Shown one piece after another: positions 15,064-19,612 of a stretch of DNA of 20,288 nucleotides (positions within the stretch are counted from its first letter, which is position 1; each line of letters begins with the position of its first letter). Location: positions 1,682 to 21,969 of IMG/VR virus record IMGVR_UViG_3300030118_001428; one strand, given 5' to 3'. The DNA comes from a virus. The notes below the pieces were generated by a model. That model searched no databases. It was given only the letters and a program-made list of their open reading frames with translations, and was not told the origin of the DNA. The translations under genes and the position numbers were made by a program.

Positions 15064-15665
15064 TATTCAATGCACTCTCGCAATGAAAAGCTAACAGAAA
15101 ACAATCCAGAAGCATCTGTTGTATATAGAACATCACTATCTAGATATACTTTAAAGTTTGGTTGATCAACTGTAACTGCTTCGCTGTTTGCAAGCGTAGA
15201 TATTATGCTAGGTGATATTGTTGCTGTGCCATTGCCACTACTATCTGAATCTAAATCTGATTCAAGAATATAGACCTTATCGTGATTAGCAAACTTAATT
15301 ACATCTCCTGCTTTCAAAACATCTGTTGTTGAATTATCAAAACCTGACAATGCTATTGTTGAATCTCCTACGCTATGAGATCCATTAACAACTATATCTG
15401 TTTGAGTTCTATTAGCACCTCTATTTGTAATTGGATATGTGTAATCAAATTTATCAAAAGAGTTTTGCTGTTTTTTAAGGAAAGCAAAAACATCCATCGC
15501 ATCATCTTTTGATAAAGGTGGTAATGTAATATCCAGAGTAAAATATTGTGATCCGTATTTCCTAGTAACTCTTTTACCAGATACAGATTGATTAATTAAG
15601 TTAGGTCTATTGTCTTGCAATGATAAGCTGCTAGGTTTTATGGTTGTTGGAAAAGTACCTGACAT
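15063..15665 (-). CDS. Minor tail / distal tail protein
   Basis: A 200-residue protein starting M-S-G-T-F-P-T-T-I-K-P-S-S-L with Q-S-V-S-G-K-R-V-T-R-K-Y-G-S-Q-Y-F (27-43) and L-P-P-L-S-K-D-D-A-M. This pattern belongs to a small family regularly found between tape measure and hub genes in marine siphophages, taken to form the ring below the tail tube. The end (L-F-S-V-S-F-S-L-R-E-C-I-E) is a beta strand with a conserved C-terminal E. Both ends overlap neighbours by 1 nt (TAATG). Confidence 0.65.
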   Translation of the reverse strand: MSGTFPTTIKPSSLSLQDNRPNLINQSVSGKRVTRKYGSQYFTLDITLPPLSKDDAMDVFAFLKKQQNSFDKFDYTYPITNRGANRTQTDIVVNGSHSVGDSTIALSGFDNSTTDVLKAGDVIKFANHDKVYILESDLDSDSSGNGTATISPSIISTLANSEAVTVDQPNFKVYLDSDVLYTTDASGLFSVSFSLRECIE

Positions 15666-17395
15666 TATGCTATCCCCATTTTACCTCTTGAGTTATAAGC
15701 TTGATTTACCATGCTTATTATCATGTTTTTTCTAGTAGCAAGCAATTCATCAAAACCTGCTGCATCTACTGTAGATATATTAAAGTTTACAGTTGCACCC
15801 ATACCTTGTCCTTTTGTGTGATCTATAACTGTTTCGTTAGGATGTAATATTGCAGGGAAGCCACCACGTCCATCTACACCACCTGCTCTAACACCCATAC
15901 CTGTATAACCACCACCTTCAGCATCAAATAGAGTGCCACCATCTGTCAATCTATTAAATTCCATAAGATCACCCAACTTACCACCTGCAAGCATATTTCT
16001 AAATGGATCAATTAATCTAGCAACTAGTAATTGTTGAATTGCAACCCTAATAAGTTGTTCTACAACAAAATCTGCAAAACTCTTAAATGATAACTTTCCA
16101 TTTCTTAAGCCTTCCACAATACTATCTTCAAATTTTTTCATTGAATTAACTGCAATAGTATCAAGTGTTTTTGAAACGTCTGCTAGTGAATCTTTAAATG
16201 CATTTATTGGATTTACCCTATCAAGCTCATTGTTAGCTTTTACTAATGAACTTAAAAAGCCATCTTGACCATCTCTTAAATCTTCTAAGGTGATTTTGTA
16301 TTTATTTAATTTATTTGCAGTTTCTTCTGCTGCTTCACCATGATTAGTTGTTTGTCTTTTCAAAAATCTAATGTCTCCTTCTAAACCCTGTATAGGAAAT
16401 CTAAGACCATCTATCTCATTAGTTAAATCTTTAAAAGGTATTGATTCTAAAATTGCAATACCTAATTCTCTAAAAACTATTTCTAATTCTAAAGCTTTAA
16501 TTTGCACCTCTCTAAGCGTTGTTGCAAATTGATCTCTAAAATTACCAACAGCAATAATTGCATTTTTAGCAAACTCAACAATTGAGTTTTGTATAAATAC
16601 AGCTATAGCATCCATACCACCAAAGTCATCTATTATCTTTTGTATCTTATCTGCAATTGTTACTTGTATTTTTTCAAAAATAGGTAAAAAACTAGCTGAA
16701 ACATTATTAACAAAAGAGCCAATTTGCATTTTAATAACACCAACAGCATCGTTAAAAGCTTCAACTCTTCTTATAGTTTTTGTAGATAAAATTAAACCTA
16801 ATCGTTCTGCTCTATCAATAAAACCATCCATACCTCTATTTGCTAAATCTTCAAGAGCATTTGTAAGTAAAATACCTTGTCGACCAAACAAGTTAGCTAG
16901 TGCTGTTGCTTTTTGTGTTTGACTTCCAAGACCACTTATACCAATCGCTACTTCTTCTAATAAAGTATCTGTAGATTTAAAATGACCATCCGTAGTTTCA
17001 AGCTCTACACCAAGAGCTTTAAAAATATCAGTCATAGTTTTAAGACCACGCTGAGAATCACCAACCGATCTTGCAAATTTCTCAAGTGCTTTATTAGCAC
17101 CTTCAATATTTGTACCTGATTCTCTAGCAGCTAAATGAAAAGCTTGAATAGCAGAAGTAGTAATACCTGTTCTCGTTGCAGTTTTGCCAATGGCATCAAT
17201 AAAGTCAAAAGATTTATTTACAACTAAAGCTAAAGCACCTGCTGCTGCTGTAGCAGCTAAACCAACACCTGCTACACCTTTTGCAGCACTAGCTGAAGCT
17301 GAACCAACTCCTTTCAATCCTTTAGTTACAGAATTAAAAGCAGCTTTAGTTCTATCTACTGCTGAAAGTTCAAATTTTACTTGTCTCTTTGCCAT
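15665..17395 (-). CDS. Tail tape measure protein
   Basis: A 576-residue protein, short for the family; at about 1.5 Angstrom per residue it implies a tail near 85 nm. The N-terminus is helical with an alanine-rich hydrophobic stretch (about 40-62), then F-H-L-A-A-R-E-S-G-T and A-L-A-N-L-F-G-R-Q-G, typical of lambda-type tape measures. The middle is coiled coil with hydrophobic parts. The C-terminus G-G-Y-T-G-M-G, G-G-V-D-G-R-G-G-F-P-A-I-L-H-P-N-E-T-V-I-D-H is the conserved end of the group. It sets tail length and is ejected with DNA. The ATG overlaps the stop of the frameshifted GT product by 1 nt (TAATG), which helps confirm that frame. Confidence 0.9.
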   Translation of the reverse strand: MAKRQVKFELSAVDRTKAAFNSVTKGLKGVGSASASAAKGVAGVGLAATAAAGALALVVNKSFDFIDAIGKTATRTGITTSAIQAFHLAARESGTNIEGANKALEKFARSVGDSQRGLKTMTDIFKALGVELETTDGHFKSTDTLLEEVAIGISGLGSQTQKATALANLFGRQGILLTNALEDLANRGMDGFIDRAERLGLILSTKTIRRVEAFNDAVGVIKMQIGSFVNNVSASFLPIFEKIQVTIADKIQKIIDDFGGMDAIAVFIQNSIVEFAKNAIIAVGNFRDQFATTLREVQIKALELEIVFRELGIAILESIPFKDLTNEIDGLRFPIQGLEGDIRFLKRQTTNHGEAAEETANKLNKYKITLEDLRDGQDGFLSSLVKANNELDRVNPINAFKDSLADVSKTLDTIAVNSMKKFEDSIVEGLRNGKLSFKSFADFVVEQLIRVAIQQLLVARLIDPFRNMLAGGKLGDLMEFNRLTDGGTLFDAEGGGYTGMGVRAGGVDGRGGFPAILHPNETVIDHTKGQGMGATVNFNISTVDAAGFDELLATRKNMIISMVNQAYNSRGKMGIA

Positions 17396-17873
17396 TACTT
17401 CTTGCTCTCTTCTTTTTTCAATTCAAAGTATGCAATCCAACCTTGATACTCTTCGATACTAATACTTTGCAATTCTTGTAATGTCTTGCCTAGTTTTTCT
17501 GCTAGTGCATATTGGAAAAACAAATTAGTATCTTTTTTTACTTTTTTTTGACATCCTCAATAGGCTCTTGTCCCATTATTTGTTGTGCTACACGCATCAA
17601 TACTTCTCTATCTACGTTGTTAAGCAGATCATTCTTATTACCAATGTCAAAAAGTTTATTGCCATCGGCATCAAGAGCTTTATAAATTAGCACATAAGCC
17701 ATCATCGTAAGATCATCCTCTTTACTAAGTCTGTACAACTTAGAGGTTTCTCCTAGTGATAATGGCTTACTGTAAATATATAAAGGCTCATTTTCATCTC
17801 CCCATTCAGGAACTTCAATCTTAGTGATCTCTTGACCGCTAAAATGTTGTTTGGCTTTATCTATAACTGACAT
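17395..17873 (-). CDS. Tail assembly chaperone, frameshifted long form (GT-type)
   Basis: A 159-residue product predicted by a -1 shift at 17541-17547: 111 residues from the short protein, then 48 from the -1 frame. The added part reads V-K-K-D-T-N-L-F-F-Q-Y-A-L-A-E-K-L-G-K-T, then L-Q-E-L-Q-S-I-S-I-E-E-Y and Q-G-W-I-A-Y-F-E-L-K-K-E-E-S-K-K. A-E-K-L-G-K-T-L-Q-E-L and a Y-Q-G-W-I-A-Y-F-E end are typical of the T part of gpGT. That frame has no ATG of its own and its TAA overlaps the tape measure ATG, so it fills a gap that would otherwise be empty. By analogy with lambda, GT holds the tape measure for assembly of the tube. Coordinates include a 1-nt re-reading. Confidence 0.8.
17538..17873 (-). 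CDS. Tail assembly chaperone, short form (G-type)
   Basis: The zero-frame product, 111 residues, ending at TAA 17540-17538 right after the slippery run. It has a compact beta start (I-T-K-I-E-V-P-E-W-G), then E-P-L-Y-I-Y-S-K-P-L-S-L-G-E and a helical half, L-T-M-M-A-Y-V-L-I-Y-K-A-L-D-A-D-G and V-L-M-R-V-A-Q-Q-I-M-G. This matches the small tail chaperones between tail tube and tape measure genes. It would be the major form, with the long form made by a minority of ribosomes. The start overlaps the tail tube stop by 1 nt (TAATG). Confidence 0.8.
   Translation of the reverse strand: MSVIDKAKQHFSGQEITKIEVPEWGDENEPLYIYSKPLSLGETSKLYRLSKEDDLTMMAYVLIYKALDADGNKLFDIGNKNDLLNNVDREVLMRVAQQIMGQEPIEDVKKK
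17541..17558 (-). promoter_or_regulatory. Programmed -1 frameshift site (A AAA AAG)
   Basis: The heptamer A-AAA-AAG, aligned with the zero frame (17547-17541), is the slippery sequence used in E. coli dnaX. It is part of a run of eight A followed by G, and the zero-frame stop TAA comes next. GAGG (17558-17555), 7 nt upstream, could act as an internal Shine-Dalgarno stimulator, as in dnaX. No clear downstream hairpin is seen. Confidence 0.8.
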
Positions 17874-18262
17874 TAATAAGTGCCTGTTGTTAAGCCACCT
17901 GTTCCTTGAACAGTAATAGTAGATTCTACTAAACCATCAAATGAAGATGATACAGATTTACCTGTAACAATTGCTGTGCCTGTAAGTTTTACATCGCCAC
18001 TTGCTGTTCCTTCTGGAGCAAAATTGAGTGTTACTGATGAACCTACAGATAAAGCTGTCTGTCCATTAGTATCAGTTTCATCATATAAAACGTCAACTGA
18101 TCCACTAAAGTCTTTAATAGAAGCTAAGTAAGTTTTGCTTGAATCACCCATACTTGTATCTTCTACAACGTCTATAGATTCATCAATACTAAAACTTCTG
18201 ATCTCAGCAATAGCGTTAGAACCAACTTGAACAGTGCCTTCCTTTCCTAAGTGAGTTGCCAT
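17873..18262 (-). CDS. Major tail (tube) protein, gpV / TP901-like
   Basis: A 129-residue beta-rich protein. V-Q-V-G-S-N-A-I-A-E-I-R-S-F-S-I-D (11-27), E-D-T-S-M-G-D, and K-D-F-S-G-S-V-D-V-L-Y-D-E (50-62) are typical of the phage tail tube group (TP901-1/phi13-like), followed by a strand-rich end G-L-V-E-S-T-I-T-V-Q-G-T-G. It should polymerise as stacked hexameric rings around the tape measure. It lies at the lambda V position, between the gpU-like and G/GT genes. Confidence 0.85.
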   Translation of the reverse strand: MATHLGKEGTVQVGSNAIAEIRSFSIDESIDVVEDTSMGDSSKTYLASIKDFSGSVDVLYDETDTNGQTALSVGSSVTLNFAPEGTASGDVKLTGTAIVTGKSVSSSFDGLVESTITVQGTGGLTTGTY

Positions 18263-18423: not shown

Positions 18424-18864
18424 TTAAACTGCTACATCAGGATTGGTTTCCTGAACGTAGTATTTTGTTAAAAATGTAAGCGAAACAAAACCCATTGGTT
18501 GTTCGCCTTCCGCATTAAACTCTATTTCTGTTGATTCTAAAAAAGTGTCTTTTGCAAGACCACCCAATGTTGTATCAGCAGCAATAGCTTCTTCAACTTC
18601 TTTGCATATTGTATCAATAGTATCATCAAAGTTCGAAGTTCCTTTTGCATAGCCTTCTACAATCACGCTTAGATCTCTTTGCATAACTCTATCATTATGC
18701 ATAACTAGTGGTTCAGATGTTTCTGATTTTGTGTAAATTACTAATGCAGGCAAAGTATCTAAAGGATAAACTCTTGATTCATGCACCCTTGTTCCTGTAG
18801 TTGTTAAATTATTAAGATTTGTTCCAAAGTATTCTCTAATCTGTTGTCTTACATGATTTGCCAT
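18424..18864 (-). CDS. Tail terminator, gpU-like
   Basis: A 146-residue protein starting M-A-N-H-V-R-Q-Q-I-R-E-Y-F-G, with R-V-Y-P-L-D-T-L-P-A-L-V-I-Y-T-K-S-E, R-D-L-S-V-I-V-E-G-Y-A-K, D-T-I-D-T-I-C-K-E-V-E-E-A-I, and F-L-E-S-T-E-I-E-F at about 107-115. These are the marks of the gpU-type terminator group, which by family caps the finished tail tube and joins it to the head. It occupies the lambda U position. The start overlaps the upstream stop by 1 nt. Confidence 0.75.
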   Translation of the reverse strand: MANHVRQQIREYFGTNLNNLTTTGTRVHESRVYPLDTLPALVIYTKSETSEPLVMHNDRVMQRDLSVIVEGYAKGTSNFDDTIDTICKEVEEAIAADTTLGGLAKDTFLESTEIEFNAEGEQPMGFVSLTFLTKYYVQETNPDVAV

Positions 18865-19214
18865 TACACTTCCTCAAGAATTAGAGATGAAAAACCTGTG
18901 CGATCTTTCTGCACATTAACAATAGTGTAGTTTTGAGCAGCTTTTAAAGTATTGCCATCAACATCTTTTATAGCTTCAACATTTAATAAATCGCCAAAAG
19001 ATGCATTTGGAACATCAACACTTCTAGCATAAGCTATCGGTTTCAAAGCTTCCAAACCAATACCTTCATCTTGCAATATAAATTCATTGTTTAAAATTAC
19101 ACTAATAGACGAAGCAGTTCCGCTTCTAGTGTAAGTTGCACCCACACCATGTCCATAATCTTTATCTAAATAATTAAGCATATCTGCTTCTGTTTCTAAT
19201 CTAAATTGGCTCAT
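18864..19214 (-). CDS. Head-tail joining protein, FII-like (copy B)
   Basis: A 116-residue protein homologous to the gene directly upstream: L-E-T-E-A-D-M-L-N-Y matches L-E-S-A-A-D-F-S-S-Y, both have G-H-G-V, and D-V-P, G-N-T-L-x-A-A and T-G-x-x-S-L-x-L recur near the end. The group resembles lambda FII/phage head-tail joining proteins. Its position right before the gpU-like gene corresponds to lambda FII/Z. The start overlaps the upstream stop by 4 nt (ATGA). Confidence 0.65.
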   Translation of the reverse strand: MSQFRLETEADMLNYLDKDYGHGVGATYTRSGTASSISVILNNEFILQDEGIGLEALKPIAYARSVDVPNASFGDLLNVEAIKDVDGNTLKAAQNYTIVNVQKDRTGFSSLILEEV

Positions 19215-19612
19215 TGTTTCTGTAATACTAATGAGACTAAGCCTGTGTTATCAGGCTCAACTGTTTTAACTAAAAATGTAGTTGCTGCAACAAGTGTATT
19301 ACCCTGATCTGTTGTTATAGCATCTACTCTTAATTCATCGTTTTGTGATATGAATGGAACGTCTGTAGCTTTTACAACTGCTCTTGGCTCAAAACCATCT
19401 ACATCAACAGTGCCACCACCAATTCCAAAATATTCCTGATCTATTATCAAATTAATGACACTTGTATTACCATCATCAATAAAACTCATAGTATCAATCA
19501 ATGGAAAATCATCAAAGAAGTTCTGCTGTTTTTCAATAAAAGTTCCCGTAACACCATGACCTGTTGTGGTTTCTACATAGCTTGAAAAATCAGCAGCACT
19601 CTCTAATGGCAT
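19211..19612 (-). CDS. Head-tail joining protein, FII-like (copy A)
   Basis: A 133-residue protein, paralog of the next gene, longer by an inserted stretch in the middle (E-K-Q-Q-N-F-F-D-D-F and D-G-N-T-S). The beta-rich C-terminal half, with D-E-L-R-V-D-A-I-T and L-V-A-A-T-T-F-L-V-K-T-V, fits small head-tail connectors. One of the pair may be the FII equivalent and the other may fill the gpZ or stopper place; the sequence does not say which. It starts with a 1-nt TAATG overlap. Confidence 0.65.
   Translation of the reverse strand: MPLESAADFSSYVETTTGHGVTGTFIEKQQNFFDDFPLIDTMSFIDDGNTSVINLIIDQEYFGIGGGTVDVDGFEPRAVVKATDVPFISQNDELRVDAITTDQGNTLVAATTFLVKTVEPDNTGLVSLVLQKQ

What the first reader, a model, noticed from the sequence alone, without database searches (positions are those of the whole stretch)
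17395..17873. Programmed -1 frameshift producing a GT-type tail chaperone
The chaperone gene ends in AAA AAA AAG TAA, with a dnaX-like A-AAA-AAG heptamer directly before its stop. In the -1 frame a 48-codon extension without its own start codon runs exactly to the tape measure gene and ends in the TAATG overlap used between the other tail genes. The product carries T-like features (A-E-K-L-G-K-T, W-I-A-Y-F-E). A GAGG lies 7 nt upstream and could stimulate slipping. A plain annotation would leave 142 bases empty and miss this protein.
Basis: partly seen in the sequence, partly recalled or inferred. Interest (0 to 1): 0.7.

Follow-up and report, generated by a model that had tools for sequence, protein, structure and literature searches.

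The report
Phage tail chaperone made by frameshift
An uncultivated marine phage carries the well-known phage trick in which a small fraction of ribosomes slip back one base near the end of a tail-assembly chaperone gene to add a short extra domain; the signal is real and conserved in hundreds of relatives, but the kind of system has been known for decades.

Summary
On the minus strand, a 111-aa chaperone gene (17873-17538) ends AAA AAA AAG TAA with an in-phase A AAA AAG. The -1 frame adds 48 codons and stops in TAATG at the tape-measure start (17395). Relatives decide the case. Of 249 loci scored automatically, 248 (mostly IMG/VR, three groups, down to about 25% identity) carry an in-phase A AAA AAG/AAC/AAA at the gene's end. 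In 159 distinct sequences the -1 frame is always open, and it is under purifying selection. Cultured relatives (Pelagibacter, Roseobacter, Sinorhizobium and Moraxella phages, a cyanophage) do the same. RcCronus (G GGA AAC) already carries the joined annotation. The extension and lambda T both match phrog_337. The modelled G part matches the HK97 tail assembly chaperone (2ob9, Z 9.5). So this is a GT-type tail chaperone: a new member of a known kind. The T part is unannotated in several cultured relatives. The GAGG is favoured in two groups and absent in a third, with a 7-nt spacer shorter than the usual 9-14, so its role is uncertain. No conserved 3' stem-loop was found. Frameshifting itself was not measured.

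The parts
17538..17873 (-). G-type tail assembly chaperone gene, zero frame, 111 aa
   Evidence: ORF; phrog_344 tail assembly chaperone E 4e-9; AlphaFold model pLDDT 80.7 matches HK97 tail assembly chaperone 2ob9, VIA Z 9.5
17541..17547 (-). slippery heptamer A AAA AAG, in phase, directly before the zero-frame stop (inside an A8 run 17549..17542 followed by G)
   Evidence: conserved in relatives
17538..17540 (-). zero-frame stop TAA, immediately 3' of the heptamer
   Evidence: same position in 66 of 80 close relatives, one codon later in 14
17555..17558 (-). GAGG, possible internal Shine-Dalgarno stimulator, 7 nt 5' of the heptamer
   Evidence: GAG favoured at this codon in two groups (52:5 and 64:1) but not in the HTVC group (7:52)
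17395..17541 (-). T-type extension in the -1 frame, 48 codons plus stop; reached by slipping
   Evidence: phrog_337 E 5e-5, also matched by lambda T; purifying selection in the -1 frame; open in all relatives of the three groups
15665..17395 (-). tail tape measure protein; its ATG overlaps the T stop (TAATG)
   Evidence: Tape_meas_lam_C PF09718 E 3.5e-12; several tape-measure PHROGs
17873..18262 (-). major tail protein, directly upstream of G
   Evidence: phrog_1407 E 6.5e-14

Best explanation
This is a GT-type tail assembly chaperone made by programmed -1 ribosomal frameshifting. Most ribosomes end at TAA and make the 111-aa G protein. A minority, with tRNAs on AAA AAG, slip back one base on A AAA AAG and read on for 48 codons to make a 159-aa GT fusion. 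By analogy with lambda, many G and few GT coat the tape measure protein and the T part brings in the major tail protein to build the tail tube; both leave before the virion is finished. Shown here: the sequence signal, its phase, conservation of heptamer and -1 frame, selection on the T frame, homology of T to lambda T, fold of G, and gene order. Inferred: that slipping occurs, its rate, and the roles of the two products.
For: [quoted passage not shown] -1 frame open in 159 of 159 distinct sequences, other frames closed in all but one case. Differences in the extension fall at -1-frame codon positions 31/14/55%; dN about 0.15-0.2 versus dS above 0.8 for relatives outside the near-identical cluster. 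Conserved ALAEKLGKT..EYxGWxAY motif across 17 extensions. T extension and lambda T both match phrog_337; hhalign of the T alignment to lambda T E 8.5e-4 over 37 columns; one T extension gives Pfam Phage_tail_T E 2.9e-6. G model matches the HK97 tail assembly chaperone. Gene order major tail protein - G - T - tape measure. RcCronus already carries the joined annotation. Model of action: PMC5009743, PMC4493119; measured slipping of 6-7% in HK97-like chaperone genes: PMC3711429.
Against: No expression data. No conserved 3' stimulatory structure in the close relatives (14 predicted pairs, none with compensatory change). GAGG spacing is shorter than usual and the motif is missing in one group. T is only 48 aa against 144 aa in lambda, so it covers only the start of lambda T.
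Confidence: 0.95

Rival explanations
1. Transcriptional slippage: RNA polymerase adds or drops an A in the A8 run, so that a fraction of mRNAs encode the fusion by ordinary translation.
For: The window and most close relatives have A8, close to the run of 9 As cited for bacterial slippage (PMC5009743).
Against: 14 close relatives have only A6 (A AAA AAG GAC TAA) and keep the same -1 extension. R4C and RcCronus use G GGA AAC with no long run. The heptamer phase is kept throughout, which RNA polymerase slippage does not need.
Confidence: 0.03
2. The T segment is a separate gene started inside by reinitiation at a TTG or other weak codon after the G stop.
For: Three TTG codons lie in the frame; the phi3LM21 record annotates the T part as a separate ORF from an internal start.
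Against: The first TTG is TTA in most relatives; 14 of 60 window-group and 54 of 55 HTVC-group sequences have no ATG/GTG/TTG in the first 20 codons. It would not explain the conserved in-phase heptamer.
Confidence: 0.01
3. Leftover coding sequence or a sequencing frameshift: T was once fused in frame and is now decaying, or the A run was miscounted.
For: Homopolymers are error-prone; the record is a metagenome contig.
Against: The same arrangement is in dozens of separately assembled contigs and in cultured isolates with different heptamers; the T frame is under purifying selection.
Confidence: 0.01

Closest known systems
Phage lambda G / GT tail assembly chaperones
   Same: G between the major tail protein and the tape measure; in-phase X XXY YYZ near the end of G; T in the -1 frame; T start region homologous (phrog_337, hhalign E 8.5e-4)
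   Different: Heptamer A AAA AAG rather than G GGA AAG; zero-frame stop directly after the heptamer; T of 48 aa rather than 144; no convincing sequence similarity to lambda G (hhalign probability 1.3)
HK97 tail assembly chaperone (2ob9)
   Same: Same fold as the modelled G part, VIA Z 9.5, 87 residues, rmsd 3.2
   Different: 17% identity; no detectable sequence match to solved chains
RcCronus RCCRONUS_11 / _12
   Same: Same gene order, T motif, in-phase heptamer and -1 extension; annotated as joined CDS
   Different: G GGA AAC heptamer; about 26% identity in G
Pelagibacter phages HTVC202P/026P/111P/112P and Roseobacter CRP-406/811/831
   Same: Homologous G and T, in-phase A AAA AAC or A AAA AAG followed directly by the stop
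   Different: Only about 33-40% identity; T extension not annotated in any of these records
E. coli dnaX frameshift site
   Same: Heptamer A AAA AAG (PMC5009743)
   Different: Different gene and outcome (here slipping makes the longer product); no conserved 3' stem-loop found, and the Shine-Dalgarno-like GAGG is closer to the site

Membership tests
GT-type tail assembly chaperone with programmed -1 frameshift | Gene lies between major tail protein and tape measure protein | tested here: met
GT-type tail assembly chaperone with programmed -1 frameshift | G part belongs to tail assembly chaperones | tested here: met
   phrog_344 E 4e-9; HK97 chaperone fold Z 9.5
GT-type tail assembly chaperone with programmed -1 frameshift | In-phase slippery heptamer near the 3' end of G, conserved | tested here: met
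GT-type tail assembly chaperone with programmed -1 frameshift | Open -1 frame reaching the tape measure gene, under selection, no conserved start of its own | tested here: met
GT-type tail assembly chaperone with programmed -1 frameshift | T part homologous to a known T | tested here: met
   phrog_337 shared with lambda T; hhalign E 8.5e-4, covering only the first ~40 residues of lambda T
GT-type tail assembly chaperone with programmed -1 frameshift | Fusion protein made at a few per cent of G | not testable with these tools
   needs reporter, mass spectrometry or ribosome profiling
GT-type tail assembly chaperone with programmed -1 frameshift | G binds tape measure, T binds major tail protein | not testable with these tools
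   known for lambda (PMC5009743)
dnaX-type stimulated shift cassette | A AAA AAG heptamer | tested here: met
dnaX-type stimulated shift cassette | 5' Shine-Dalgarno-like stimulator 9-14 nt upstream | tested here: inconclusive
   GAGG at 7 nt; favoured in two groups, absent in one; range from PMC5009743
dnaX-type stimulated shift cassette | 3' stem-loop stimulator | tested here: inconclusive
   no compensatory change in 16 relatives; window z about -0.8 to -2.6 depending on length; hairpins just 3' in some distant relatives such as HTVC111P and R4C

The most novel reading that the evidence does not exclude
This marine phage group has a reduced GT system: a T part of only about 50 residues that keeps just the start of lambda T, with the zero-frame stop placed directly after the heptamer so that slow termination, helped by a GAGG 7 nt upstream, sets the slip rate instead of a 3' structure.
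Probability: 0.25. Interest if true: 0.35.

Novelty: new member of a known kind. Interest (0 to 1): 0.2.

Why it matters
It fills an annotation gap: the T domain of the chaperone is missing from records of cultured Pelagibacter and Roseobacter phages and would be missed in hundreds of ocean contigs. The large aligned set gives a natural experiment on which heptamers and contexts work for marine hosts and on how small T can be. It does not change the general picture of phage tail assembly.

Tried and rejected
A profile search with the diverse G alignment could not be run because no conserved stretch was long enough. A scan of bacterial genomes with the phi3LM21 G protein found no relative. Sequence searches of solved structures gave only chance hits for G and mainly designed repeat proteins for T. 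A single-sequence model of G was poor and was replaced by one with an alignment. A conserved 3' stem-loop was looked for and not found. NCBIfam has no match for the fusion. Pfam's Abi_2 hit to G is below cut-off and was ignored. Transcriptional slippage, internal start and decay or sequencing error were considered and rejected for the reasons given under rivals.

Full report
What is there. The window is nearly all of a 21,969-base uncultivated virus record. On the minus strand the tail genes run: major tail protein (18262-17873), a 111-aa chaperone (17873-17538), a 142-base stretch, then the tape measure protein (17395-15665). The chaperone ends GAG GAT GTC AAA AAA AAG TAA. The heptamer A AAA AAG is in the phase needed for a -1 slip and the stop follows it at once. 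After a slip, reading continues GTA AAA AAA GAT ACT... for 48 codons and stops in TAATG at the tape-measure start.

Is it more than chance? Within the window, in-phase A AAA AAN occurs 8 times in about 6,500 codons, and no other gene combines a heptamer in its last ten codons with an open -1 extension of comparable length. The real test is in relatives. A search of IMG/VR with the chaperone found 263 relatives, of which 80 were fetched. All 80 have an in-phase heptamer at the end of the gene: A AAA AAC 45, A AAA AAG 30 (in 14 of them one codon before the stop), A AAA AAA 5. The -1 extension runs on in every one, 47-52 aa where complete by that count, with the motif YALAEKLGKTL...EYQGWIAYFEL. 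Two further searches, from the Pelagibacter phage HTVC026P and the Roseobacter phage CRP-831, bring the total to 249 loci scored, 248 with an in-phase heptamer. In 159 distinct sequences the -1 frame is never closed, while the other two frames are closed in all but one case. Near the beginning of the extension no start codon is shared by all: 54 of 55 HTVC-group and 14 of 60 window-group sequences have none in the first 20 codons. Substitutions in the extension fall by -1-frame codon position as 31, 14 and 55 per cent, and dN is several-fold below dS. The extension is therefore a selected coding sequence that is best reached from the chaperone frame.

Cultured relatives. A protein search of phage records found Pelagibacter phages HTVC202P, HTVC026P, HTVC111P and HTVC112P, Roseobacter phages of the CRP-822 type, Sinorhizobium phage phi3LM21 and, more weakly, Rhodobacter phage RcCronus, Dinoroseobacter phage R4C, cyanophage KBS-S-2A, Moraxella phage Mcat9, phage DSL-LC06 and others. 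Fourteen were read in detail. All have the -1 extension and a slippery sequence in phase: A AAA AAC or A AAA AAG in most, G GGA AAC in R4C and RcCronus, and G GGG AAG a few codons before the stop in the distant Kolga. RcCronus is annotated as a joined CDS, so the arrangement was already recognised in a relative. The HTVC and CRP records leave the T part unannotated; in HTVC111P and HTVC112P a minus-strand ORF is annotated over it. The paper on the CRP phages names the chaperone but the word frameshift does not occur in its main text.

What the parts are. G matches phrog_344, tail assembly chaperone. A model of G from 28 relatives has mean pLDDT 80.7, and its best match among solved structures is the HK97 tail assembly chaperone 2ob9: Foldseek probability 1.00 with E 2.4e-3, VIA Z 9.5 over 87 residues. 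The T extension matches phrog_337, 13 of 17 T extensions match it, and lambda T matches it too. The T alignment aligns with the first 40 residues of lambda T at E 8.5e-4 (a low hhalign probability, so it supports rather than proves), and one of the 17 extensions reaches Pfam Phage_tail_T at 2.9e-6. The T here is thus a short version that keeps only the start of lambda T.

How it works. The established model (PMC5009743; PMC4493119) is that many G and few GT coat the tape measure protein through G, and T recruits the major tail protein; the ratio matters. HK97-like chaperone genes slipped at 6-7% in experiments (PMC3711429). The anatomy here fits this model in every testable respect. That slipping happens in this phage, and at what rate, is inferred.

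Stimulators. The GAGG 7 nt upstream rests on a GAG codon that is favoured over GAA in the window group (52:5) and in the CRP group (64:1), against a mixed background for other glutamate codons, but in the HTVC group the codon is GAA in 52 of 59. These counts do not correct for relatedness. The published spacing for -1 stimulation is 9-14 nt, so 7 nt is short. A role is possible but not established. No downstream structure with compensatory change was found in close relatives, though some distant relatives have hairpins just downstream.

Verdict. Confirmed, correctly interpreted, and of a kind known since the lambda work and generalised by Xu, Hendrix and Duda in 2004 (cited in PMC4493119). New member of a known kind, low interest.

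Noticed in passing
L094 (Marine virus AG-345-A17, MH327491.1) about 860-1040: G-like and T-like frames are related by +1 (or -2), not -1, and there is no in-phase heptamer: a possible different shift or an assembly error in a single-cell amplified record.
   Followed up: partly
MN698245.1 18179-18331 and MN698246.1 19123-19269 (L085, L087): Minus-strand hypothetical proteins annotated over the T extension in HTVC111P and HTVC112P are probably spurious.
   Followed up: no
L084 996-1106 (phi3LM21_p41): Annotated hypothetical protein is the T extension given an internal start.
   Followed up: partly
17530-17541, minus strand: After the first slip the -1 frame reads GTA AAA AAA GAT, which holds a second in-phase A AAA AAA in the window phage; it is not kept in most relatives.
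   Followed up: no
2473-2623: Part of the DNA methylase gene is about 84% identical at DNA level over 151 bases to that of cyanophage P-RSM4, the only close DNA match of the window among phage records.
   Followed up: no
18864-19612: Two adjacent genes both match the head closure family phrog_82, suggesting a duplicated gene.
   Followed up: no
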